Part shown: piece by piece, positions 21,154 through 55,224 of the stretch
Layout of the letters: each line of letters starts with the position of its first letter
Numbering within the stretch: the first letter of the stretch is position 1
Assembly: GCA_014871385.1 (NCBI GenBank)
Contig: CM026424.1
Span: forward strand, 9,096,847-9,160,846
DNA from: Ceratodon purpureus
Taxonomy: Eukaryota > Streptophyta > Bryopsida > Pseudoditrichales > Ditrichaceae
DNA length: 64,000 nucleotides
Reading direction: 5' to 3'
The notes under the pieces: model-generated
Told to the model about the DNA's origin: nothing
Seen by the model: the letters and a program-made list of their open reading frames with translations, nothing else
Databases searched by the model: none
Program-made: the position numbers and the translations under genes

Positions 21154-22929
21154 ATGGCCTTGGGCTCTCAAGTCGGTTGGAAAGCTGAAGATGGAGCAGC
21201 AGACGATGCTTGGAACGACAACACCCCTGTTCCTGCGAGTGTACCCGCACCGGCCACTATCATTGCCACCAAGCTGAGTTATTCCAAAGTTGTCAAGGCA
21301 GACACTTTTGTGAACAAGAATTCGAATCTCTCCGAAGCTGATGCTGATCGCTGCCACTTTCTGGAGTTGCCACCTGCTCTGATTCTGGAGATTTTCCAAC
21401 ATCTAGATGCGCGTGCGTTGTGCCTCCTTTCGTGCGCCTGTGTCCTATTCAGGCGTCTGGCATCAGATAGCCATGGATGGAAGAATTTCTACTGCGAGCG
21501 TTGGGGCCTTCCGGCGAGCCCAACCACAGGGGCGCTGTCAACCTCGCCTGAGAAATCATGGCGAGAGCTTTACATGGCACGCGAAGAGAGATGCAAGGTC
21601 TTGATGGGGCGCTTCCAGATGGACATGCTCCACGGCCACACGGCCGCTGTGCGTTGCATCCGCCTCCTTCCGGCCGCCAACCTTGTAATCACCGCAGGGT
21701 ATGACCAGGTGGTACGCGTGTGGAATTTGGAGGAAGGGTTGCCCTTGGTGTGCTCTCGTCCTTTGGAGGAAACCCTGCGCGCCATTGCAGTGGACATGGA
21801 GCTCCTTGCAGTAGCAGGCAGCAACGCCGTAATACGCATCTGGCGTGCGATTCCTGAATGTCCTCAGCTCTTCGACGTGGCAGGGATTTGGGGCGGACCC
21901 AACAGCAAGGGCGCTGAAACGTGTCTTTATGGGCACACGGGTCCCATCACATGCCTCGGTCTCGATGCTACCAATATCTACAGCGGCTCATGGGACATGT
22001 CCATTCGCGTGTGGGATCGTGTTACTCTCCGCAGCGGGAACCAGCTCTTGCATAACGATTGGGTGTGGGCATTGGTACCTCGAGGACGCCGGATTCTTTC
22101 CACTGCCGGCAGTCATGTATATAGCTGGGACATCGAGACAGGGCACCACCGAATGCGTGCAGGGGCACATGTAGGACAAGCATATGCAGTTCAGGGCAGC
22201 CGCTCCGGCGACTTCGTCTTCACAGGGGGTGAGGATGGGGCTGTGCGCATGTTCGATGATCGGCTCATGTCACGGCAAAAGCGTGCAGGTGGGTCCAAGA
22301 GTAGTGGTGCTACAGGAGATTCATCAGCTCTTGCTGTTTGGATGCCTCAGAGAGGGGCTATTCATTCTTTGGCTTTCGAGGATCCATGGCTGGTTGCTGC
22401 CTCGGCAGATGGTAGTGTAGCCATGATGGATGTGAGACAGATCATGGAGAAAGCCAGTGCAAGTGGGAAGAGGCTTCCCTCAAGTTCTATGTTAAGATCA
22501 AGGACTTCTACTTCCGCATCCCAAGTTTCAGTTGGGAAGACGGGCGAAGAAACCGTGCAGCGATTTTTGGTGCCTGGCACTCATCAGTGTTTATTTAGTG
22601 TAGACCTAGGTGCAGATCGTGTAGTGAGTGGGGGGGACGAGATGATGGTGCGCATTTGGGACTTTTCGCAGGCCATCGAGATCGAGCGTAGTATTCAGGC
22701 ATCTAGAAGAAACAGCCAGCGTAGTCGTCGTAGGAAACAGGCAGTTCAAGCGCCTGCTGTAGATCAGAAGCCACTCAGTTCTGAATTAACCAGAGGTGCG
22801 ATCAGTCAAAGGCGACCTGAAGTAGTGGCAAGCACTTCAACGAAAGCAGCGGGATCACGGCAGGGGTCGAGTTCGGGGTGGGTTACGCTTGGAAGGATCA
22901 GGAAGAGCCAGACTGTTGGGGGCTCTTAA
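21154..22929 (+). CDS. F-box/WD40-repeat protein, intronless, 591 aa
   Basis: Predicted substrate receptor of an SCF (SKP1-Cullin1-F-box) ubiquitin ligase. The F-box spans about residues 69-115 (ELPPALILEIFQHLDARAL, then the conserved Trp and CERW). From about residue 155 to 505 there are WD40-type blades, recognisable from GHTAAVRCIRL...VRVWNLEEG, YGHTGPITCLGL...IRVWDR and VFTGGEDGAVRMFDD, ending with GGDEMMVRIWDF. The C-terminal tail is basic and low-complexity (runs of Arg, Ser and Gln). The domain order resembles the Arabidopsis F-box/WD40 proteins of the At5g21040 (FBX2) type, which is a recollection and not a search result. The single exon contrasts with all neighbouring genes and could reflect retroposition or an ancient intronless state. 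The start is the first ATG of the frame. Confidence 0.93.
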   Translation: MALGSQVGWKAEDGAADDAWNDNTPVPASVPAPATIIATKLSYSKVVKADTFVNKNSNLSEADADRCHFLELPPALILEIFQHLDARALCLLSCACVLFRRLASDSHGWKNFYCERWGLPASPTTGALSTSPEKSWRELYMAREERCKVLMGRFQMDMLHGHTAAVRCIRLLPAANLVITAGYDQVVRVWNLEEGLPLVCSRPLEETLRAIAVDMELLAVAGSNAVIRIWRAIPECPQLFDVAGIWGGPNSKGAETCLYGHTGPITCLGLDATNIYSGSWDMSIRVWDRVTLRSGNQLLHNDWVWALVPRGRRILSTAGSHVYSWDIETGHHRMRAGAHVGQAYAVQGSRSGDFVFTGGEDGAVRMFDDRLMSRQKRAGGSKSSGATGDSSALAVWMPQRGAIHSLAFEDPWLVAASADGSVAMMDVRQIMEKASASGKRLPSSSMLRSRTSTSASQVSVGKTGEETVQRFLVPGTHQCLFSVDLGADRVVSGGDEMMVRIWDFSQAIEIERSIQASRRNSQRSRRRKQAVQAPAVDQKPLSSELTRGAISQRRPEVVASTSTKAAGSRQGSSSGWVTLGRIRKSQTVGGS

Positions 22930-30969: not shown

Positions 30970-32300
30970 TCAAACAGCTGGGATGTTAGAAAATGAGAAA
31001 CCCTTGTAACCCTTATATGCATAGTACGCAATCCTAGTGTAGTAAAACCCTGGCATAAACAGAAGTGTTCCAAGAATGGCAAAGGCGATGCCTGTCACAC
31101 ACCACACAAAGAAACGAAGAATCAGCGTTGTGCCGTGTGAACCGTAGTCTTGCCCAACAAGATGCTGCTAACACATCCAAACTGCCACTGATGAAATACC
31201 AGATAGGAAAAGCACAATTCGGAGAAACTATGAAAAAAACTGGATCATGGAAAACCTGACATTATCCGAATCCATCCATAATATTATCAAAATATCATAA
31301 AGGTTTTACGACTTCACTAGTTAGCCGAACTCTATAGACACCAACTAGGTCGTCCAAGGAGACGTGAGCAGGCAGATTACATAACAAAGATAGGGTTAAT
31401 TTAGAATTATACCGTACGCTCCCATAAACGTACCAGCCACGCAATGGTCATTAATAACAAACTTCCTCATGTATGCATATGTTCGGCATGCATATACATG
31501 TAATGTACTTTCATCCAACAGTAACCAATCTATCTACACGCAGTAGGATGTCAATCAACGACGTGTGAATAATGCGGCTCATTAAAATAACCAAAGGGGC
31601 GTGACCAGTCAGATCCCTAAAGCACGAAAAATTATAGAAAATCTCCAAATCCTGTGCACGACAATGAAATTCCACTACCAGATCATGCTTCTCCTCGTAT
31701 GTAATCAAAAAGATCAGAGAATTAGTCTGCGCAAGCCCTGATCATCAGAGGAAGGCTCACAAACTTCAATTGAGAAACCACGATTTCTAAAAACTGATAC
31801 TCACACAACCAAAACGCTGCCCAGAAATCCCACTATCTACCGTCCTAAACGTAACGCCTGGCAGAACCCTGACAACTCGTTCATCCGCCTCCTCACCATT
31901 CAACAACCCACAAGCCCCCAAACCCTATCTACTCATTCCACGACATCAAACTCATCCAACCCCTCAAATTCAACAAGATCCACAACACTAAACCCCCAAT
32001 ACCTCACTTCACACACCCAAGGGTTAACAAACACAACCCCCAATCAAAAAGCCACTCCAAAATCACCAACCCTCACGAAAGAATGAACACATCACAACCA
32101 CAACAACCAAGCTCACCGTGACCCGAATCTCCGCCCACTTTGTACACCGACATGACAACCCCGAAGACAATCCCCAGCGTGCCGAGCGCCAGCAGCGTCA
32201 CGGCCAGCGCAATTTCCTTCACAGGCGGCCCGTTGTGAACAATGAACGTCCCCCCGCTCACGTCGTCCCGGATTGAAAACGTATGGTCTACGTACGCCAT
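30970..32300 (-). CDS. TMEM230: TMEM230 (DUF872) membrane protein, 2 exons, 101 aa
   Basis: A small two-pass membrane protein of endosomal/secretory trafficking; in animals TMEM230 is linked to Rab vesicle transport. Minus exons: 32300-32117 and 31091-30970, joined in phase (G|GC). The plant-type start [13 protein letters not shown], the [10 protein letters not shown] segment, a first hydrophobic helix (about residues 29-50), the KVGGDSGHG loop and a second helix ([23 protein letters not shown]) are visible. The end is the conserved [13 protein letters not shown]. The length equals the usual plant homologue (about 100 aa). A single intron of about 1 kb carries half of a segment that is duplicated upstream of the purple acid phosphatase gene. 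Confidence 0.95.
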
Positions 32301-33169
32301 TGCAACGACCTACCGCAACAAAAACCCCACAACTGACCTCCAAACTCTCCAACCCCAATCTCTCAGCTCCAAACTCTGCAATCAATCAACCAAAGCGCAA
32401 ACTCCCAATGCTCTTCACCTCCTGCTCCTCCTCCTGCTCCTCCTCCTTCTCCTCCTCACTCTTCCTCTCTCTCTCTCGCTCCCACTCCCTTCGCTCAAAC
32501 CGCCTCGCCTCGCTTCGTCTCCGCTTCGAGGTTTCTTCGAGCTCTGTTCTCTGCGAGCTATTGCCACCTTCGCTCTGCTTCGACACAGCTACCGGAAAGC
32601 CACCATTTAAGACCTGTTTCTTCTCTTTTTGAACATTCAGAGGAGATTATGTACGCGGACGTTAGATTTTGGTGGTATTAGGTGACATGACGGTTTTGGG
32701 TCTGGTTACAGGAGCTTGACGTGAAGGAAGTCAGAGCGACGAAGTGAGGCTTCAAAGTAGGGAACCCAAATGTGTTTGATATCTTCAGGGTCTAGATATT
32801 GTGATGAGATTCTTGGCTTTTTGTAGAATTTGGGCGGACTTAGGTGTGCGTCGGAACCGGGTGGAGTGACTGGTCGGATGATCATGTCAGGAGTCGACGT
32901 GGGAAGGAAGACTGGAGGGTTGGCCTGGTGGCGACGTAAGACCGGGTCGGGTAGGTCCGGGTATCGGTTGGGTATGGTGGGACCGGGCGCTTCCTCCGGG
33001 AGCTTGCTAGGTTGGGGGCCCCTTTGTGTTCCTTTGAAAGGCGTTCAAGTTCATGGGAAACTGCAGCCTGGATTCCTAATTATTTTCCATGGGGGCCACT
33101 TGGCGATGGGTTAATGGTGGTTTGTTTGCTTTTGATACCATGCGGTAAAGGATTCCATATTTTGTACTA
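31627..33169 (-). repeat. Duplicated segment, complete copy (TMEM230 intron, exon 1, promoter)
   Basis: A segment of about 1.54 kb that recurs in shortened form at 53762-54882 in the same orientation. It covers part of the TMEM230 intron, exon 1, the leader and about 850 bp of upstream DNA. The two copies are nearly identical over long stretches (for example 32830-33114 against 54543-54827), so the duplication is recent. This copy keeps the functional exon and is presumably the source. Confidence 0.9.
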
Positions 33170-33217
33170 AAATCATGCAGTGCTACATTTAGTGCTGGCA
33201 AATTCGCTAAATGTTTA
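32301..33217 (-). promoter_or_regulatory. TMEM230 leader and promoter
   Basis: Upstream of the TMEM230 start codon lies a purine/pyrimidine-biased leader (plus-strand CT-rich run at about 32418-32485, GA-rich on the coding strand), typical of plant 5' leaders. Further upstream is a G-rich stretch of about 300 bp (32830-33114) that is open in one plus frame. It is conserved in the second copy only because of recent duplication and is not treated as a gene. Confidence 0.4.
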
Positions 33218-33237: not shown

Positions 33238-34416
33238 AGACCCATTTGTGGTCGCTGGGGCATCGGAAACTGGAATTCCGGTGACGCTATTCCGGGACAG
33301 CAAAAGTGTATACCGGGACGGACCAGGGCGTGAACATTATCTGCAAGTTGGAAAAAAAAATTTCGAATCGGATCATGAGAGACCCCTCAAATACATGATT
33401 ATACTGGAACACCGTAAGAAAGAAAACTAGCGTGGAAGGGAAAAGAAGAACCCCCTACGTATAATTTGCGCTAAACAAGTGCTTGGGTTTCCAAAGTGGA
33501 CTTCAGTGTTCCCACGTGGTAAGGGGAGGCGTTCTCATTCGGTGGGAACAAGAGTTCACCATAACCGTCCCCTCGTATTCGCGGGTGGACCGGGGGCACC
33601 CGACGAGAGAGCTTTTCTTCCGTTCGCGGGCCTGCGTTGAAACCCTGAGCGGTGTCGCGACCACAGCTGGTTCACAGAAGGGTTTTGAGGGATATGGGTT
33701 CAGGAGGTTGCGTCGCGACCGAGGTGTGGGTGCATTTAATTGCGTTGCGTAAGTTTTCGGGTCGTGTCAGGTATTTGCAGGGGATTCCTGTGGTTCGAGG
33801 TTTAGGGCGGAGCGATGGGATTAGGAGGCGGAAGGGGATTGGGAGAGAGACGCTGCGGCATTTGGACGATTGCGTATGGGCATGGTGAAGGGGGCAGTGA
33901 ATGGGTGTGTTACGCCAGTGGAGGAGATCGTAAGCGGGCTGCGCAGACTCAGGGAATTTATCAGGCCAGTCGGCTACATCAGCCTACTCAGCTACAAACA
34001 CTAAAGCCCAGGTATGTTGCGTGCTGTATGCAGTTGTTTTATGTGTTCAATTCATGCTTGAAGTTGGCGGCTGTGGCAGAGGGGAGGAAGGACTAGGAGT
34101 GAGGGTAATCTTAGAGTTAGCTACGGAATTCGCTGATCTACGGGGGGAAATATTGATAGGGCATGCAATCGAAGGCGGCGTCACGGCAAGGTGCACTACT
34201 AGGCGACCTCCCAGGCAATCGAGGCGTGCAATGCAGTGGCCGCCCCCACCATCAAGTCCCCCCCCCCCCCCCCCTTCCCCGACGCCCACCGGATCCTGCT
34301 GGAGTGGGGACAGGAGCAAGGTGCGAGAGGACATGCGCAGGAGGTATTGGGAGCACTGCTTCGGAGGGAGTACCTCTCACGATTGCCGCTGCCCCGAGGG
34401 TGCAAAGGATGCTCGG
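33238..34416. other. Left arm of the piggyBac element
   Basis: Moderately GC-rich DNA between the left end and the nested retrotransposon. Several plus-strand frames are open. One between 34236 and 34416 is coding-like and contains a CKGC motif; when joined across the insertion it continues for about 15 codons into 40849 onward. A poly-C tract at 34258-34274 lies inside it. No family is recognised. Confidence 0.45.
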
Positions 34417-35107
34417 TGTTGCGGACGGCATCTCTAAGATAGAGCAAGGGACTAAATTGAGGGGATACCTCAAAGGGAGACAAGAATAGACTAGAAGTGA
34501 GGGGATTCCTCACACAAGACTCAGAATAACACTTGAAGTGGGAAAACTAGAAGTGATATTGATAACTGAAAGAGTATGTACAACTGGTGTTGAAGAGAGT
34601 GAGGAGCAATGGCCCTCGACTCTCTATTTATACTAGGCTAGAGGAAACTTCCGAAGAAAGGTCCTAGAGACCTTGGGAAGCATCCATAGGACCTTCCGGA
34701 AGCTTATGGGAGCTTCCGGAATCTAAGAAGGTCAAGCGGAACCTTCTGGAAGCTTATGGAAGCTTCCGGAAACAATTGGATCCGTATGGAACCTTCCGGA
34801 AGCTTGTAGAAGCTTCCGGAAGCTTGTAGAAGCTTCCGGAAACTGCTAGAACTATAAGGAAGCTTGTAGAAGCTTCTAGAAACTACTAGAACTACAAGGA
34901 AGCTTGTGGAAGCTTCCGGAAACTACTGGAAGGTTCTAGAAAGTAGTAGAAGCATGTAGAACCTTCTAGAAAATAATAGCATTTAAGCACGCTTAGCCAC
35001 CGCAGTTTGGGAAAGCTCTTGAGAAGCTTCCGTGTTGCGGATTCGGTATAGGTCCCACGGTAAACTCGTGGGGCGTGGATGAAGTCCGGTATGGCACGTC
35101 CGTGACA
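34417..35107 (-). repeat. 3' LTR of the chromovirus
   Basis: This LTR is 691 bp, the same length as the other. The differences I can find are two near its left end and one C/T change within the GAA array region. It carries the same GAA array (34699-34971) and TATA box (34625-34632). Confidence 0.95.
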
Positions 35108-35120
35108 TCACCCCCCTTCA
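35108..35120 (-). other. Polypurine tract
   Basis: The minus-strand GAAGGGGGGTGA directly abuts the 3' LTR, as expected for the plus-strand primer of LTR retrotransposons. It confirms the minus orientation. Confidence 0.8.
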
Positions 35121-35539: not shown

Positions 35540-36990
35540 TCAAATGTTTCTTGGTTTTTGAGGATACTGCCGATGAAACTCCTGAATCATTTCAGGGGCA
35601 TTCTGAAGGTTTGAGACAGGCTCCCAGGTTCTTTCGCTGATGTCATAGCCATGCCAATGCACAAGGTATTCTAGCCGTCGACGGTGGATGCGAGAGTCCA
35701 GAATCTCCGAGACTTCAAATTCTTCATCTCCTTCAATTTCAATTGCATGAGGGGGTTCTTGAACTCTACCTGGTAATGTTGACTCTTTATATGGCTCGAG
35801 GATAGAGACATGGAATACGGGGTGGATCTTCATAGAGGCAGGTAACTCCAACCGGTAGGCCACCTTATTGATTTGCTTGACCACTGGGAATGGTCCAAGG
35901 CGACGGTAGTCAAGTTTGTCAGATGGCCGTCGAGTCTTCAAGTTCCGACGAAGTAGCCATACCTTGTCTCCAACAGAGATCTGAGGATGATCCTTGCGAG
36001 ACTTGTCGGCGTTGGTCTTCTGATGTTGTTGGGCTTGAATGAGGCTCTGCTTCATCTCTTTCTGAATATCAAATAATCGGGTAGCAAGCTCAGCAGCAGC
36101 GGGATTTTCAGAAATGTTCAAGTTGAATTGATCAAACCTTGGATGACGACCGTGGTTTGCAAAGAAGGGGGTCTGTTGAGTAGACCCTTGTAATGTGTTG
36201 TTGTAAGCAAACTCGGCAAGCGGCAACAAGTCCACCCAGTTATCTTGATGATAGTTGATGGTGCAACGCAAGTACTGCTCCAACACTTGATTGACGCGCT
36301 CGGTTTGGCCATCGGTCTGAGGATGGTATGCTGAAGACAACTTGATCTCAACTCCTAGAATCTTGAATAATGATTGCCAAAACTTGGATGTGAATTGCGT
36401 ACCGCGGTCAGAGATGATGTCGTTAGGCAGGCCATGGAGTCTGTAGACGTTGTTTACAAAAAGTCTTGCTGTCTCTTCACCGGTCACAGTCTTGTGGCAC
36501 GGAATGAAGTGTGCCATCTTGGTGAGCTGGTCAACAACAACAAAGATTGAATCAAAGGTCTTGGATGGTGGGAGATCCACAATAAAATCCATGGATATGG
36601 ATGTCCATGGGGCTTCTGGAATCGGCAACGGTTGAAGTAACCCATATGGCCGATGACGAGGGATCTTGGATCTAGAGCAGGTGTCACACGTTGTGACATA
36701 ATCCTTCACGGTTTTCCACATTTGTGGCCACCAAAAGTCTCTAGATATCAGCTCCATGGTCTTGTTGTAGCCAAAATGTCCCGCCGATGGAAAGTCGTGT
36801 CGGGACTGGAGCACTTGAAGTCGGCAGGGGCCTTCAGGGACATAAAGTAATCCCTGATAGTATAATAGCCCATCTTTGAACTCGAATCTTGGATCAGCAT
36901 CGTCTTGGGGAGTCTCACGCGATCTAGAAATCCGTGAACTGGGAGTAGACAACTGGATATTGAGCTCCTTCGAGGAAGTGACGCCACTCT
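35540..36990 (-). pseudogene. Chromovirus pol part 2: integrase with chromodomain
   Basis: Out of frame with pol part 1 after the internal deletion. Integrase is otherwise well preserved: the HHCC zinc domain (ending TTCDTCSRSK), the catalytic core (SMDFIVDLP, SDRGTQFTS and HPQTDGQTERVNQ), and a GPF/Y-type module (RRLGPFPVV). The C-terminus is a chromodomain (FEVSEILDSR, YLVHWHGYD, TWEPVSNL), which in this group directs integration to modified chromatin. The open frame ends at 35540. Confidence 0.95.
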
Positions 36991-38762
36991 TGGAAAGAGT
37001 CGACAATGGCTAAAAGCTCCTTGTCGTGAATCTCGTAATTGATCTCGGCGGCTGTGAATTTTCGCGAGTGGAACGCGACGGGATGAAGGCGTCCTTCTTT
37101 GTCGGGTTGTGAGAGGGCCGCTCCAAGGGCAAAGTCAGAAGCATCCGTTTCTAGGAAGAACGGCTCCTGAAAGTCAGGGTGTGTCAGAATAGGCGCTGTT
37201 GTAAACGCCTTCTTCAAAAATTCAAAGGCTTGGCTTGCTTCCGCATTCCACTCGAGCTTTTCCTTGCAAGTTAATCGTGTCAACGGAGCTGCAATCTTGG
37301 AATAGTCTTGGATGAAGATTCGATAGAAGTTTGCAAAACCGAGGAAGCACTGTACGTCTCGAACGGTGATCGGCTTCTTCCAATCAATGATTGTCTGAAT
37401 CTTCTTAGGGTCCATCGATAAACCCTCTCCAGAAATGATGTAGCCCAGAAATTCAACTTGGAGTTGGTGGAAAACGCACTTCTCCAGCTTGGCGTAGAGT
37501 CCTGCAGCGCGTAACTTTTCCAATACCAGTCGGACATGTTTGATGTGGTCTTCTTCATTCTTGGAGAAAACCAGTATGTCATCGAGGTAACAGACAACAA
37601 AATCATCTAGAAACTCGCGGAATATGTCGTTCATTAGGTGTTGAAAGATGGCAGGTGCGTTGGTAAGACCAAAAGGCATGACATTGTATTCAAAGTGTCC
37701 ATACCTAGTTCGGAATGCCGTCTTCCATTCGTCACCTTCCTTGATACGTACTAGGTTGTACGCTCCACGAAGATCGATCTTGGTGTAGATCTTTGCTTGA
37801 CCGAGTTGGTCAAGAAGTCCTGAGATAAGCGGCAATAGGTACCGGTTCTTGATTGTGACCTTGTTTAGTCCACGATAGTCCACGCACATCCGAAGGGAGC
37901 CGTCTTTCTTCTTGACAAATAGGATAGGAGCTCCGGCAGGTGACTTGGAATGTCGAATGAAGTTCTTTGCAAGATTTTCATCAAGGTACTCTCGCAACGC
38001 AGCAAGCTCATTCTGTGAGAGGCTATAGATTGGACCAAATGGAGGTTGCGCACCTTCTTGAAGTTCGATGCCGCAGTCATAAGGTCGATGTTGGGGGAGT
38101 GTATCGGCGTTCTTCTTCTCAAACACATCTCGATACTCCTCATACTTTGCTGGTAACTTGATTGATTCTTGAGCCGGTTGAGATGTTGGAGTTGCATAAA
38201 TTGCAAAGACACTCCCATTCTTAGCCGCCTTCATAAAGGCTCGACCACCGACCATCAACGGAACCTTGACCTCAGACTTTTGGATTTGGTAAGGGTATAG
38301 ATTTGGACTATTTTTAGGGTTTTTAAAAGGAATATGAGAAACTACGGTTGGATATGTTAACCTTCGATTTTTCCAATCTATATCTGGATTGACCACCTCT
38401 AACCAGGAGAGACCTAAGACGAGAGGATTAGAGGGAGAACTAATGATATTGAATACGATAATACTGCGTTGCCCTTCTAGGATAATGTCTAAGGGTTTGG
38501 TTTCGTGGGTGACATCTCCTGAAATCAAGGGTCTACCGTCGATAACCTCTACTGCTACAGGGTATTTTTTGGAGACTACAGGGAGATTATGACGTTTTAC
38601 AAGACCCCTATCAATAAAACAAGCAGAGGCTCCGGAATCTAACAAGGCTTTAACTTTTACGTGATGTGGATGACAATCTATCTTAAGCGGGATATGAAAA
38701 CAACGAGAGGGTTCATAGGATAAGATAGGACCTGATGACGTGGCAACACTTGTCAGCCGCAC
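36924..38762 (-). pseudogene. Chromovirus pol part 1: protease, reverse transcriptase, truncated RNase H
   Basis: This frame opens inside the gag 3' end in a different reading frame, so gag and pol would be linked by frameshifting. Aspartic protease is seen as LLDSGASACFID. The reverse transcriptase shows VKKKDGSLRMCVDYRGLN, MPFGLTNAP and the catalytic YLDDIL. RNase H begins with LETDASDFALGAALSQ and keeps the ELLAIVDSFQEWRHFLEG helix, then is lost abruptly after YPVV. About 100 codons of RNase H and linker appear to be deleted and the frame changes at the junction near 36940. Confidence 0.95.
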
Positions 38763-38767
38763 GGTCC

Positions 38768-39754
38768 CTAATGTGGCTGGCAGCTGTCGTTTTCCGACTC
38801 GACTTCCTCATGGTTTGGCTCAGAAGTGCTTGAGGTGCTCCGAAACTTGTGTGGCTTTGGTCCCTGAGGTTTCACAGGGCAGTTCTTTACGCTATGGTCC
38901 TTCCCTCCACAATATAAACGCAACTGCTCCTTGCGACGCCACTCTTTCTCTTCTTCGCTCAACTTTCTAACTTTAGAGGTGTCAATTTGCATCGGCTCTG
39001 CGGTCGAAGTGTTCGAAGATGTCTGATGGATTGGAGTTGCGTAATCCGCTCGATATGATCCGAAGAGCAATCGTTGCTCTAGTCGCTGCTCAAACAACCG
39101 ATTGTCGCAGTCGATTGCTTGAGTAATGGCTTCAGACAGAGTAGTTGGCTTGGGCAAATTCAGCAACAAGGTCTTGATATCGTCGCGGAGTCCCCATCGA
39201 AACATGGTGATGAGAGCCGCATCGTTCCAACTGAGGTCACATGCAAGTTGTTGGAATTCTGCAACGTACGCTGAAGCTGGGCGCGATCGCTGTTGCAGTG
39301 TTCGAAGTTTTGTTGTTGCTATAAGGGCTCGATCTCTCTCTCCAAAGGTTCGGTTGAGTTCTTCCAGGAATTGGTCAAGATGTGCTAGAAGCGGAGAATT
39401 CTTCTCCAACAAGGAAGAAAACCAAGATGACGCGGCTCCTGTGAGCAACGTTCCAATGAATCCGACTTGTATTTCTCCTGTTGAATACCTCTAAGGTTGG
39501 AGACGGAAGATGAGCCGAATCTTGTTGATAAAATCCCGGAGTTTCGTACGATCTCCCTCAAATTTATCCGGCAAGGCTACTCGAGGTTCCTTTGGCGCAT
39601 GTGGAGCAGGATCTACTACACTGGTTGGAACAGGGATTGGAGTTGGAGCAACTTGAAGCTGTTCCATGGCACTTCGTAGGTTGGCATTCTCCTGCTGTAA
39701 GTGCTGTAGCATGGCAAACATGTCATGCATCTCAATGTTCGGAACGTCACCCAT
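38768..39754 (-). pseudogene. Chromovirus gag, interrupted by one stop
   Basis: Gag supplies the capsid and nucleocapsid. The frame starts at an ATG at 39754 (MGDVPN), runs through a coiled-coil-like stretch (FAMLQHLQQENANLRSAMEQ), meets TAG at 39493-39491 and continues in the same frame with the conserved capsid region (LTGAASSWFSSL, then a TFGERDR segment). It ends in a zinc knuckle and an acidic tail. The knuckle reads LRLYCGGKDHSVKNC; the first of the three Cys is replaced by Arg through a single base change. Both defects are single transitions. The pol frame overlaps the end of gag. Confidence 0.9.
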
Positions 39755-40110: not shown

Positions 40111-40360
40111 GGAAGAACCCGAGACAGAACTAGGAATTCACTCTCTTCAAACTGTTGCGGACGGCAACTCTAAGATAGAGCAAGAGACTAAATTGAGGGG
40201 ATACCTCAAAGGGAGACAAGAATAGACTAGAAGTGAGGGGATTCCTCACACAAGACTCAGAATAACACTTGAAGTGGGAAAACTAGAAGTGATATTGATA
40301 ACTGAAAGAGTATGTACAACTGGTGTTGAAGAGAGTGAGGAGCAATGGCCCTCGACTCTC

Positions 40361-40368
40361 TATTTATA
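40361..40368 (-). promoter_or_regulatory. LTR TATA box
   Basis: TATAAATA on the minus strand, placed between the GAA array in U3 and the presumed transcription start about 30 bp further left. The same sequence is present in the other LTR at 34625-34632. Confidence 0.75.
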
Positions 40369-40434
40369 CTAGGCTAGAGGAAACTTCCGAAGAAAGGTCC
40401 TAGAGACCTTGGGAAGCATCCATAGGACCTTCCG

Positions 40435-40707
40435 GAAGCTTATGGGAGCTTCCGGAATCTAAGAAGGTCAAGCGGAACCTTCTGGAAGCTTATGGAAGCT
40501 TCCGGAAACAATTGGATCTGTATGGAACCTTCCGGAAGCTTGTAGAAGCTTCCGGAAGCTTGTAGAAGCTTCCGGAAACTGCTAGAACTATAAGGAAGCT
40601 TGTAGAAGCTTCTAGAAACTACTAGAACTACAAGGAAGCTTGTGGAAGCTTCCGGAAACTACTGGAAGGTTCTAGAAAGTAGTAGAAGCATGTAGAACCT
40701 TCTAGAA
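40435..40707 (-). promoter_or_regulatory. 10-bp-phased heat-shock-element array in U3
   Basis: GAA triplets (plus strand) start at 40435, 40455, 40475 and then at nearly every tenth base to 40705, about 25 in phase, with only isolated gaps. Where TTC falls in the opposite half-turn, the 13-base pattern GAAnnTTCnnGAA is perfect. I count nine such sites, starting at 40475, 40495, 40525, 40545, 40565, 40605, 40645, 40665 and 40695. This is the binding site of trimeric heat-shock factors. The array is immediately upstream of the TATA box on the transcribed strand. The other LTR has the same array. Heat inducibility is inference from the motif. Confidence 0.8.
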
Positions 40708-40947
40708 AATAATAGCATTTAAGCACGCTTAGCCACCGCAGTTTGGGAAAGCTCTTGAGAAGCTTCCGTGTTGCGGATTCGGTATAGGTCCCACGGTAAA
40801 CTCGTGGGGCGTGGATGAAGTCCGGTATGGCACGTCCGTGACACTCGGATCCAAATTCCCTAGAGCCTCGGCAGCTGCGGTATTTATTTTGAAGACAAGC
40901 GGCCCGGATTCCGGGTTGGCGGGATCGAATTCAGGAAGGGGATCAGA

Positions 40948-42927: not shown

Positions 42928-43008
42928 TAGGTAGCAGTCCCGCCGAGCCAGCTGGAAATCGCGGCACTTGAGAAACGGGTGGCCACTGCGGTAGCGAAGC
43001 CTTGCACC

Positions 43009-45063
43009 ATGGAGGACTTGAGCGTGGATCCAAGAATCCAATGGGATGGTGTGTCAACGGAAGACCATGTTGGCGGGGCTACGAGGGGGCCCGATTTCCA
43101 CCAAGCCGGGACTGCCCAAGATGAGGAGTCAGACCCGGAGTGGATCCCGACATCTGCGTGCGTTGGGGCAGGGGGCGCGGGTGGAGGAGATGGCGGAGTG
43201 CCCCGTCCAGGCTATGACCCCTCCAACGAAGACGACGACGAAGAGGGACCGGAGGCGAGGCACACATTGCTGGCCGGGCTGGGTCAGTACGGGGCCGGAC
43301 CAAGAACCGAGGAGGAGGAGCGCTTTGAAGTGCGATACGAGGAGACGAACTGGCATGAGAAGACGTGGAATCTACTCCCACGGAATGAGTTCAGTGGACC
43401 GCCACACGGCTCAAAGATTGAATACTCGGAGCCTATTACCCCTCTGGACAGTTTCCTCCACATCTGGACGGACGTTATTCATCGGAGAATTGTCAAAGAA
43501 TCCAATGCATACGCGGATTGGATCGACCCGAAGACAGGAAAGAGAAAGGGAGGGCAGGAAGTGCAGCCGAAGATAACTTTGAAAGAGCATCGACAGTTCT
43601 TAGGAATCTGTATCCTAATGGCAGTAAGGAACCAGCCGAGGGTACGGGATTTTTGGGGACAGCAAAGTGATGCCCTTCACTGTCAGCCAGTGGCAGGTAC
43701 AATGAGAAGAAACCGATTCCTTTACATGTTGCAGTGCCTACATGTGACCTCCAAGAGCGCCCTGAAGTATAAGAAACCGGATCCCAGGTACGACCCCATT
43801 GTGCAGATCAGGTGGCTTCTAGAGACACTCGTGCAGAACTTCCAGTCTCTATGGAACGCGTCACCTTACCTCTGTGTGGACGAGTCAATGGTCCCGTACA
43901 ATGGACGGTACTGCAGCTTCAAGCAATATCTCCCTCTGAAGCCCATAACGCATGGGATCAAAATGTGGTGTATGTGCTGTTCAGTCACGAAATATGTTCT
44001 CAACCTCGAGGTGTATGTTGGAGCTGCAAACGAGGCCAATGCCAATCTACCGCAGCACGCTTGTGGGGCAGGAGCAGGAGAAGTGTCGAGGCTAACAAAT
44101 GGCTGGGAAGGCCATTGGTATACAGTGGCGATGGACAATTACTTCACCAGCCCAATGTTGTTTGAGAATTTGCTGGGCAGGGGATTCTATGCAGTCGGGA
44201 CCGCAAGGCAGGGGCGGGTGGGCTTCCCCACGAGCTTGAAGGTTCCTGACAATGTGCCCAGGGGCTGCCTGGAGATGCGCGTCCACAGAAAACGGACCAT
44301 GGCAGCCATTCACTGGCAAGACACGAAGGGAGTCAGTTTTTTGTCTACTGCTGCGGACCCCATGGTAAGGGGAGGCATCACTGTGACACGCCATCACCGA
44401 GGGGGGAAGTCCGAGATACCTACTAGCCCTATCCCGATGTTGTACAGTGCCACGATGAGGGGTGTCGACACCCAAGACCAGCTTCGGGCAAGTTATACAA
44501 CACAAATATTCACCAAGAAGTGGTGGCACAGACTGTTTTTTTTTGGAATGGACTCAGCTACTACCAACGCGTACCTCAGGTACAAACACATTTGTTTTCA
44601 GTTCGGAAAGAAGCCAGTGGATCACGAAAGGTTTATGCTCTTGCTGGCTCACGGGTTAATGGAGTGTCCCCTTGTAGGGGAGCTCAGTTCCATGCCTAGT
44701 ACCAGGCGGTCCAGCATGGGGGACATGGGAGGCGGTACTCAGGGTGAAGACAGCCCGACCATAGCGGAGGGGGGCCCCGAGCAGGAGCTTGAGGACTTCA
44801 TCCTCTCACAAGATTCGGTGAACCAAGTACCCGTGGAAGGCCCGGATGACGGAGGTGCCCCGGCTTTAGGCGTTAGTGACGCCCGAGCCCCCGAGACCCC
44901 TGTTCCGGGCAGAGGGCGTCTACCCACTCACGCCCCCCGGAACGCCATAACGCTCTCAGCCGGGGCTGCATTAGGCTCTCTCAACCGGAAGGGGGTCTTC
45001 CAGCGGAAGGGAGAGTCGCAACGCTGCCTCAACCACCCCAAAGAGGTCGCCTCCTTGCCATAG
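43009..45063 (+). pseudogene. piggyBac transposase (DDE_Tnp_1_7), DDD core intact
   Basis: A piggyBac transposase cuts at TTAA and moves without leaving a footprint. From the ATG at 43009 the frame gives 684 residues: an acidic, low-complexity N-terminus (SNEDDDEEGPEA), then the conserved domain (WTDVIHRRIVKESNAYADW, EHRQFLGICILM and NRFLYMLQCLHV). The three acidic residues are present in VDESMVPYNGRY (codon 43879-43881), MDNYFTSPM (44134-44136) and GVDTQDQLR (44467-44469). The normal C-terminal cysteine-rich domain is missing from this frame but is found just downstream in another frame. Sequence upstream of the ATG is in frame and coding-like back to a TAG at 42928. Confidence 0.93.
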
Positions 45064-53252: not shown

Positions 53253-53761
53253 GGTACCTGTCTCAGCCAAAGCCCAATCACATCAGAACATCAAAAAACA
53301 AAAATCCAAATAAAATATGCACCTCCATAATGGACGAAAATCATATAAACAAAGCTTCCAATCCCACTCCTTGAAACCTCAAAACCAAATCTCATTCAAC
53401 TTCCATTCTAGAGCTCAGACTTGCCACAACTGAGCTAAACCAAACAACACCCAGAGATTCATCACCAATTAGGGTTTAAGAAAACCCCAATTCTCAGTAA
53501 AACCCTTCGGTAATAAACCCTAAACAAACTCCCTGAGAATCCAAGCCCATCAAAACCTTCAACCATCATCACCTCATCATAATCTCCGTTGAATTGGACT
53601 ACTCATAGCCTCTGTTCTACTCTCCTTTTCCCATCGACTACACTTACCCACATACTCAACCAAGCAGACGAGAACATCAAACTGCACCGACCACACAAAC
53701 ATGACAAAGACATGAAATTGAGAACAATTTCCTCAGCTCACAAAACTCTTCCCAAAATTAC
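53253..53761. promoter_or_regulatory. Proximal upstream region of the phosphatase gene
   Basis: A C- and A-rich flank with an AAACCCTAAAC telobox-like motif near 53514. No TATA box is obvious. Beyond it begins the duplicated TMEM230-derived segment. Confidence 0.35.
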
Positions 53762-54882
53762 AAAAATTATAGAAAATCTCCAAATCCTGTGCACGACAAT
53801 GAAATTTCATTACCAGATCATGCTTCTCCTCGTATATAATCAAAAAGATCAGAGAATTCGTCTGCGCAAGCCTTGATCATCGGAGAAAGGCTCACAAACT
53901 TCAATTGAGAAACCACGATTTCTAAAAACTGATACTCACACAACCAAAATGCTGCCCAGAAATCCCACTATCTACCGTCCTAAACGTAACGCCTAGCAGA
54001 ACCCTGACAACTCGTTCATCCGCCTCCTCACCATGCAACAACCCACAAGCCCCCTAACATCCAACCCCTCCAATTCAACAAGATGCACAACACTAAACCC
54101 CCACACACCCAAGGGTTAACAAACACAACCCCCAATCAAAAAGCCACTCCAAAATCACCAACCCTCACGAAAGAATCAACTCACATCCAACACATCACAA
54201 CCACAAGAACCAAATTCACCGTGTCCCGAATCTCCGCCCACTTTGTACACCGACATGACAACCCCGAAGACAATCCCGCCCACTTCTCGTCTTCGACACA
54301 GCTGCCGGAAAGCCGCCATTAAAGACCTTTTTCTTCTCATTTTGAACATTCAGAGGAGGTTATGTACGCAGGAATTATATTTTGGTGGTATTAGGTGACA
54401 TGACGGTTTTGGGTCTGGTTACAGGAGCTTGACGTGAAGGACGTCAGAGCGACGAAATGAGGCTTCAAAGTAGGGAACCCAAATGTGTTTGATATCTTCA
54501 GGATGTAGATATTGTGATGAGATTCTTGATTTTTAATAGGTTTTGGGCGGAGTTAGGTGTGTGTCGGAACCGGGTGGAGTGACTGGTCGGATGATCATGT
54601 CAGGAGTCGACGTGGGAAGGAAGACTGGAGGGTTGGCCTGGTGGCGACGTAAGACCGGGTCGGGTAGGTCCGGGTATCGGTTGGGTATGGTGGGACCGGG
54701 CGCTTCCTCCGGGAGCTTGCTAGGTTGGGGGCCCCTTTGTGTTCCTTTGAAAGGCGTTCAAGTTCATGGGAAACTGCAGCCTGGATTCCTAATTATTTTC
54801 CATGGGGGCCACTTGGCGATGGGTTAATGGTGGTTTGTTTGCTTTTGATACCATGCGGTAAAGGATTCCATATTTTGTACTA
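53762..54882 (-). repeat. Duplicated TMEM230 segment, shortened copy
   Basis: Matches 31627-33169 in the same orientation with about 400 bp missing, including the TMEM230 start codon and most of exon 1 (source interval about 32174-32573). About 57 bp of exon 1 remain (near 54220-54277) next to a changed donor. Small deletions also occur in the intron part. As a TMEM230 gene it is dead, but it retains the upstream promoter DNA and points towards the phosphatase gene. Confidence 0.92.
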
Positions 54883-55224
54883 TTATTATGGGAGTTTGTA
54901 AATTTTAAAATCTGGGTAAAGTCGTTATGGTTTTAACTTTTGGTTTGTTGTTTTTGTGGCTTTAGTTGCTTGAAATAAGGAAGATGGTGCTTAAACCGTG
55001 GACTTAAGGGATTTGAGCAGCTTGAATCAAGCATAAATAATTGCAAAAAATTCACATACTTGCAAGAAAAAGACGATTCATTAGGCAGTGTTTACATGAG
55101 CATATCAAACCACCTCAAATAATGAAAAATGTTCAAAAAGAAATCAACAAAATCCCCCATAGACATGCCCTAATGCTACTATTGACAGTCAAGACTAAGG
55201 TGAGAACTGGCCATCTTGGTATAC

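What the first reader, a model, noticed from the sequence alone, without database searches (positions are those of the whole stretch)
40435..40707. Retrotransposon LTR carries a 10-bp-phased array of about 25 heat-shock half-sites next to its TATA box
GAA triplets recur at exactly 10-bp steps over 270 bp, and nine positions fit the perfect three-unit heat-shock element GAAnnTTCnnGAA. The array lies in U3 directly upstream of TATAAATA on the transcribed strand and is kept in both LTRs (also 34699-34971). Heat-responsive LTRs with heat-shock elements are known for the copia element ONSEN in Arabidopsis, but there the number of sites is small. A uniform array of this size in a chromovirus of an apparently seed-free plant would be a strong, independent case of heat-shock-factor capture. 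The strict phasing puts all sites on one face of the helix.
Basis: partly seen in the sequence, partly recalled or inferred. Interest (0 to 1): 0.9.

Follow-up and report, generated by a model that had tools for sequence, protein, structure and literature searches.

The report
Retrotransposon promoter with giant heat-shock array
A family of jumping genes in what is likely a moss carries about 35 copies of the heat-shock-factor recognition motif, in strict register, just upstream of its TATA box, so heat would likely switch it on; short versions of this trick are known from flowering plants and suspected in fungi, and here the array is several times longer and a similar one sits in a sister family.

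Summary
The array is real and far beyond chance: 25 GAA and 10 TTC triplets share one 10-bp register over 273 bp, with nine perfect GAAnnTTCnnGAA elements, in U3 of a young Tcn1-like (self-priming, chromodomain) Ty3/gypsy element. It is a family trait: all 40 LTR copies scored with an array-free query (of 145 candidates) hold it. A sister family in the same genome (81.6% identical over RT-RNase H) has its own array (22 GAA at unbroken 10-bp steps, seven contiguous half-sites) in the opposite orientation. Four further relatives whose contigs hold U3 keep one or two perfect sites upstream of TATA. In the same genome 11 of 19 HSP20 genes examined have the same perfect element upstream. Best reading: the LTR is likely an HSF-driven, heat-inducible promoter whose ancestral short site grew by tandem duplication. 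HSF binding and heat induction are untested, and a within-family test for selection on half-site letters was not significant once CpG columns were removed. HSE-bearing LTRs are known (ONSEN, TERESTRA; putatively Cryptococcus TCN12/TCN3), so this is an extreme variant of a known kind. The "one face of the helix" claim fails over the full length.

The parts
34412..34416 (.). target-site duplication, left copy (CTCGG)
34417..35107 (-). 3' LTR (691 bp)
   Evidence: 688 of 691 identical to the other LTR, TG...CA ends
34699..34971 (.). heat-shock-element array in the 3' LTR
   Evidence: 18 perfect elements in the window, all in the two LTRs
35108..35119 (-). polypurine tract next to the 3' LTR (by eye)
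   Evidence: internal 3' end reads GAAGGGGGGTGA
35540..37006 (-). integrase (H2C2, core, SH3-like) plus chromodomain; in another frame than the RT part
36924..38762 (-). protease, reverse transcriptase, RNase H
38771..39652 (-). part of gag that aligns to L001 gag; one in-frame stop codon at 39491-39493 in this copy
40138..40150 (-). predicted self-priming primer-binding site, TTGAAGAGAGTGA
   Evidence: 13-nt complement of the predicted RNA 5' end; 0 of 2000 shuffles reach 13 (maximum 11)
40153..40843 (-). 5' LTR (691 bp)
40326..40338 (-). predicted RNA 5' end / self-primer (TCACTCTCTTCAA), 30 nt downstream of the first TATA base
40361..40368 (-). TATA box TATAAATA
40435..40707 (.). heat-shock-element array in U3: 25 GAA and 10 TTC in one register, nine perfect three-unit elements
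40844..40848 (.). target-site duplication, right copy (CTCGG)

Best explanation
The LTR of this chromovirus family, in what is likely a moss, carries an array of about 35 sequences that match the heat-shock-factor half-site, upstream of its TATA box, and is likely a heat-inducible promoter: on heat stress HSF trimers would bind many sites at once and drive transcription of the element. Shown by sequence: the array, its place in U3, its presence in all 40 family copies scored with an array-free query, young insertions (identical LTR pairs), a separate array in a sister family, and the same perfect element upstream of HSP20 genes of the same genome. Inferred: HSF binding, heat induction, and that an ancestral single site (as in three relatives that are probably from a fern) grew by duplication of a 10-bp unit. 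Gain and loss of whole 10-bp units would keep the sites in register, so occupancy could scale with array length.
For: Register and counts against shuffles. Array-free query (R-U5): 145 candidates, 40 scored, all 40 next to an array with 14-26 GAA in phase and 3-10 perfect elements. Fifteen LTR pairs: 0 substitutions in three, 1-3 in eleven, 10 in one; exact 5-bp target-site duplications in 14 of 15. Positive control: 11 of 19 HSP20 genes (9 of 15 distinct promoters) have a perfect element within 400 bp of ATG, 0 of 19 in the -1200 to -800 control, 0.06 expected from shuffles; at most two per gene against nine here. Relatives: the four contigs that hold U3 all carry perfect sites upstream of TATA (L001 two; L003, L007, L010 one each), reached by 0, 6, 11 and 4 of 4000 shuffles; spacer letters differ while GAA/TTC/GAA stays. 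Sister family: 22 GAA at unbroken 10-bp steps, seven contiguous half-sites, opposite orientation, in paired 475-bp LTRs. The promoter position is anchored by TATA plus the self-primer 30-32 nt downstream, in the window and three relatives. Genome-wide: 222 hits of a seven-block array pattern against 4 for the reversed pattern. Precedents: predicted 3P up to about hundred-fold, 4P up to thousand-fold transcript rise; HSFA2 binds the ONSEN LTR in vitro; a moss gypsy family, RLG2, induced by heat.
Against: No expression or binding data. Within the family, half-site columns change less often than other array columns (35 of 105 against 79 of 168, p = 0.032; by events p = 0.073), but not significantly when CpG-touched columns are left out (31 of 101 against 58 of 142, p = 0.14); the first test on 36 distinct copies gave p = 0.09, and 0.18 for GAA alone. 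Whole-unit gain and loss follows from slippage alone, so kept phasing is not proof of selection. No perfect four-unit run in any of the 40 LTRs. Eight of the 19 HSP20 genes have no perfect element in 400 bp. P. patens RLG1, also a chromodomain element, is repressed by heat. This copy has a stop in gag and a frame change in pol.
Confidence: 0.72

Rival explanations
1. Neutral minisatellite: an HSE-containing 10-bp unit expanded by slippage in U3 and hitch-hiked with an otherwise successful element; most copies of the site add nothing.
For: Array length varies mostly by whole units (LTR lengths 620-721 bp; three of 15 elements have LTRs that differ by exactly 50 bp; six of the seven gap kinds in or at the edge of the array are multiples of 10). 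No firm selection signal on half-site columns.
Against: Two sister families have long arrays of the same motif with different spacers and opposite orientation; in both the GAA triplet is the least varying three-column block of the unit (5 deviations in 81 cells; 0 in 66). Single or double sites are kept in relatives.
Confidence: 0.14
2. HSF-bound, but the trigger is another HSF-using programme (dehydration, ABA, UV or development) rather than heat.
For: In P. patens RLG2 is induced by both ABA and heat.
Against: The same perfect element sits upstream of HSP20 genes here, which are classically heat-induced (recalled).
Confidence: 0.09
3. RNA-level role: U3 is transcribed at the 3' end, and the palindrome-rich array folds strongly, for example for dimerisation, packaging or RNA stability.
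For: Predicted folds far below shuffles: z -7.6 for this array, -6.4 for the sister family, 0 of 200 shuffles as low in either.
Against: Alternating GAA/TTC blocks can pair with each other in RNA by their nature; strict 10-bp phase, place upstream of TATA and match to host HSP20 promoters are not explained.
Confidence: 0.05

Closest known systems
ONSEN / COPIA78, TERESTRA, COPIA37, ROMANIAT5 (Brassicaceae Ty1/copia)
   Same: HSF-type elements in the LTR coupled to heat; ONSEN's strong site arose by duplication of a proto-site (PMC5059998, passages; PMC3907296, passages).
   Different: Those are copia elements; the largest cluster in the passages read is six nGAAn motifs (A. lyrata TERESTRA). 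Here a Ty3/gypsy chromovirus with 35 half-sites in register. Heat response is shown there, untested here.
Cryptococcus TCN12 and TCN3 (LTR elements of a fungus that mobilise at 37 C)
   Same: Putative heat-shock elements in the LTR; TCN3 is Ty3/gypsy (PMC12810828, passages).
   Different: One putative site (TCN12) or two (TCN3); no array mentioned; HSF role is suggested there, not shown.
Tcn1-clade chromoviruses of mosses and club-mosses
   Same: Chromodomain with aromatic cage, self-priming in most members, non-seed-plant hosts (PMC6317226, passages; PMC2864245, passages).
   Different: No heat-shock element is mentioned in the passages read; 'heat' occurs 0 times in PMC2864245.
Physcomitrium patens RLG2
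   Same: A moss gypsy family reported as strongly induced by heat and ABA (PMC7466625, passages).
   Different: Its LTR was not examined here; 'motif' and 'cis-regulatory' occur 0 times in that text.
Human satellite III
   Same: A tandem repeat that HSF1 activates on heat shock (listing and starts of abstracts only).
   Different: Pericentric satellite, not an LTR promoter.

Membership tests
Tcn1-clade chromovirus | gag, protease, RT, RNase H, integrase, chromodomain in this order | tested here: met
Tcn1-clade chromovirus | chromodomain with aromatic cage residues | tested here: met
   F, W, Y at the positions aligned to the cage residues of CBX5 (cage positions recalled)
Tcn1-clade chromovirus | self-priming instead of a tRNA primer site | tested here: met
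   13, 12, 11 and 11 nt complementarity in the window, L001, L007, L010, with changed letters on both sides; 12 nt in the sister family
Tcn1-clade chromovirus | RT groups with Tcn1 / Tf1-Sushi elements and not with seed-plant chromoviruses | tested here: inconclusive
   groups with unnamed relatives near amphibian and fungal rows; no labelled Tcn1 or seed-plant reference was in the tree
HSE-driven heat-responsive LTR retrotransposon (works like ONSEN) | three or more adjacent nGAAn blocks in the LTR upstream of TATA | tested here: met
HSE-driven heat-responsive LTR retrotransposon (works like ONSEN) | HSF binds the LTR | not testable with these tools
   needs DAP-seq or gel shift
HSE-driven heat-responsive LTR retrotransposon (works like ONSEN) | transcript rises on heat, dependent on HSF | not testable with these tools
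   no expression data held
ONSEN (COPIA78) family itself | Ty1/copia domain order | tested here: not met
   integrase after RNase H, chromodomain present, so Ty3/gypsy

The most novel reading that the evidence does not exclude
HSF-array escalation: at least two sister chromovirus lineages of one moss each grew arrays of 20 or more heat-shock half-sites out of a short ancient site, in opposite orientation. Together these many arrays (222 hits of a seven-block pattern, often several per array) would form a dispersed HSF sink and switch that fires a synchronous burst of retrotransposition, and possibly draws on the host's own heat response, at each heat shock.
Probability: 0.25. Interest if true: 0.82.

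Novelty: new variant of a known kind. Interest (0 to 1): 0.64.

Why it matters
It would extend HSF capture by LTR elements from copia elements of flowering plants (and, putatively, fungal elements) to chromoviruses of seed-free plants, and it shows a graded series (one site, two sites, 20-plus-unit arrays) in which the evolution of a stress-responsive promoter can be read from sequence. Natural unit-number differences, even between the two LTRs of one insertion, give a ready series to test whether HSF response scales with site number, and whether a host with many such arrays pays for it.

Tried and rejected
Isolated microsatellite in one copy: rejected. Other relatives as contrast: L005, L006, L008, L009, L011 (41-44% identity) have no perfect element outside coding sequence (the one in L006 lies in pol), but whether they hold U3 was not established, so they are no proper negatives; L002 and L004 do not reach U3. 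Viral contigs: the protein scans gave no relative; a pattern scan gave 10 contigs that I did not examine. Selection on half-site letters within the family: no firm result (one search used 61 copies, 56 distinct, about a third of them found by the array pattern, and left out the diverged L091, L093, L094). C3:1480634 (L086), nine contiguous half-sites, looks like a simple repeat; its open frames were listed but not searched. The LTRs L063/L064 were dropped from dating: 12.2 kb apart, and L064 has its own target-site duplication (a solo LTR). Not done, for lack of answers from the tool: HSF gene count, and a pol-based census of related families. The statement that no such array was found in print rests on searches (open-licence papers only).

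Full report
What is there. The window holds one Ty3/gypsy element on the minus strand between 34417 and 40843: two 691-bp LTRs with three differences, TG...CA ends and a CTCGG target-site duplication. Pfam finds gag, aspartic protease, reverse transcriptase, RNase H, integrase and a chromodomain; this copy has one stop in gag and a frame change between RNase H and integrase. Just inside the 5' LTR lies a 13-nt complement of the R region that starts 30 nt after the first TATA base; the best of 2000 shuffles reached 11. In L001, L007 and L010 the same arrangement is kept with other letters on both sides (12, 11 and 11 nt, starting 31-32 nt after TATA; 0 of 2000 shuffles each). Self-priming of this kind is predicted for most elements of the Tcn1 clade of moss and club-moss chromoviruses (PMC6317226, passages). 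It also marks the likely RNA start and so places the array in U3.

The array. In 40435-40707, 25 of 26 GAA are in one 10-bp phase and all 10 TTC are 5 bp out of it; nine GAAnnTTCnnGAA; 5000 shuffles never exceeded 10 in phase or one perfect element. There is no perfect element in the window outside the two LTRs. Over 27 ten-base units the three GAA columns deviate from their commonest letter in 5 of 81 cells, the other seven columns in 67 of 189 (counted). With 10.0 bp per unit and about 10.5 bp per helical turn (recalled) neighbouring sites face the same way, but the array as a whole winds round the helix.

It is a family trait. A search of the window's own genome (362 Mb, 151 contigs) with U3 gave 182 candidates, 40 scored; I fetched 38 of these LTRs, the other two being the window's, and all 40 hold the array (15-26 GAA in phase, 3-10 perfect elements, no perfect four-unit run). 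Because that query contained the array, I repeated the search with R-U5 only: 145 candidates, 40 scored. Of these 40, 28 were already characterised (24, window included, and L098, L107, L113, L114) and 12 were new; all 40 hold the array, the lowest having 14 GAA in phase. The scored copies are those most like the window's, so older copies were not sampled without bias. Fifteen LTR pairs differ by 0 (three pairs), 1 (one), 2 (four), 3 (six) or 10 (one) substitutions; 14 of 15 have exact 5-bp duplications and one matches in 4 of 5. In three of the 15 the two LTRs of one element differ by a gap of exactly 50 bp. In the first alignment (40 rows, 36 distinct) there are 11 kinds of gap against the window LTR: six are multiples of 10 and lie in or at the edge of the array, four are single bases (one of them, at 40656, inside the array), and one is a 26-base end effect.

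A second array family. A seven-block pattern from the array has 222 hits in the genome against 4 for the reversed pattern (only the first places, on C1-C4, were listed). Of 20 stretches fetched at such places (one of them an internal piece), most align to the LTR of the window's family or of a second one; L086 and L087 align to neither. The second family (L076-L078) has 475-bp LTRs, a CATAT duplication, gag-pol related to the window's (gag 43%, RT piece 69%, integrase piece 66% identical; 81.6% over RT-RNase H) and a 12-nt self-primer 31 nt after a TACAAATA box. Its U3 has 22 GAA at unbroken 10-bp steps, with 0 of 66 GAA cells deviating and seven contiguous perfect half-sites; 3000 shuffles reached at most 7 GAA in phase. 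GAA lies on the sense strand there and on the antisense strand in the window's family, and the spacers differ, so separate growth of the two arrays is likely, though one origin with inversion is not excluded. Its copies were found by the array pattern, so array retention among the 13 loci (seven-block run in 12 of 13) is not an independent count.

Other relatives. A scan of prokaryote contigs for the RT piece gave 11 loci in MAGs and isolates, evidently contamination by eukaryotes. The four that hold U3 all have perfect sites upstream of TATA: L001 two, L003, L007 and L010 one each, starting 78, 77 and 88 bp before TATA; 0, 6, 11 and 4 of 4000 shuffles reach the count. L003, L007 and L010 come from one Trichormus MAG, which suggests the fern Azolla as their source (recalled), and are related to each other, so they are not three independent cases. 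In the careful RT tree the window, the sister family and L001 fall in one clade of 12 rows (100/99) and the Trichormus-MAG rows in another. The simplest order is one site first, arrays later; this is inferred.

The host reads this motif. Of 20 HSP20 loci cut out (34 matches in the genome), 19 had a start codon in frame: 11 have a perfect element within 400 bp upstream and 8 do not; 0 of 19 in a control stretch, 0.06 expected; four of the 19 promoters repeat another one, so 9 of 15 distinct ones. None has more than two. The host is likely a moss: the best named match of the F-box/WD40 gene at 21154-22929 is Sphagnum tenellum, 59%, with unnamed matches up to 89%. At least thirteen contigs over 16 Mb, one of 110 Mb, would fit Ceratodon purpureus, which is a recalled guess.

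How it likely works. HSF trimers bind alternating GAA/TTC blocks (established knowledge); in Brassicaceae elements predicted 3P sites go with up to about hundred-fold and 4P sites with up to thousand-fold transcript rise (PMC5059998, passages), and HSFA2 binds the ONSEN LTR in vitro (PMC3907296, passages). Nine perfect elements interleaved with direct GAA blocks upstream of the TATA box would make this LTR a strong heat-inducible promoter. A gypsy family of the moss P. patens, RLG2, is reported as strongly induced by heat and ABA, while the chromodomain family RLG1 is repressed by heat (PMC7466625, passages). Steps shown: sequence, position, presence in every scored copy, young insertions. Steps inferred: HSF binding, induction, selection.

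Against. Selection on half-site letters could not be shown within the family; slippage alone keeps units in register; the RNA of the array folds strongly (z -7.6), which could matter by itself; and there are no expression data.

Verdict. Observation confirmed; interpretation supported as the best reading; an extreme variant of a known kind, with family-wide and cross-family evidence.

Noticed in passing
L001:97-293, L007:1555-1716, L010:2705-2861, window:40138-40368: Self-primer and primer-binding site co-vary between relatives while staying complementary, 30-32 nt after TATA. For SM-Tcn1 of Selaginella neither tRNA priming nor self-priming was found (PMC2864245, passage).
   Followed up: yes
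L079, L080, L092 (G000 C2:17536093-17559175): Five hits of the second family's array at about 5760-bp steps: elements seemingly in tandem, sharing LTRs.
   Followed up: partly
L086:1035-1118 (G000 C3:1480634): Nine contiguous perfect heat-shock half-sites outside the two families, in a GAAGATTCYA-type simple repeat.
   Followed up: partly
window 42979-45063: Long piggyBac-type transposase ORF (DDE_Tnp_1_7, E 7e-72, 694 aa) next to the LTR element.
   Followed up: no
window 31614-33177 and 53750-54890: A second repeat pair, 87-96% identical, about 22 kb apart in direct orientation.
   Followed up: no
L001-L011: Chromovirus contigs of eukaryote type sit in GTDB species genomes labelled cyanobacteria, Neobacillus, Shewanella and others: likely contamination.
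   Followed up: no
L007:1555-1600, L010:2705-2750: The predicted RNA start of these relatives lies in a hairpin (GTTCGCCTTGA...TCAAGGCGAAC, perfect in L007, one G-U pair in L010; read).
   Followed up: no
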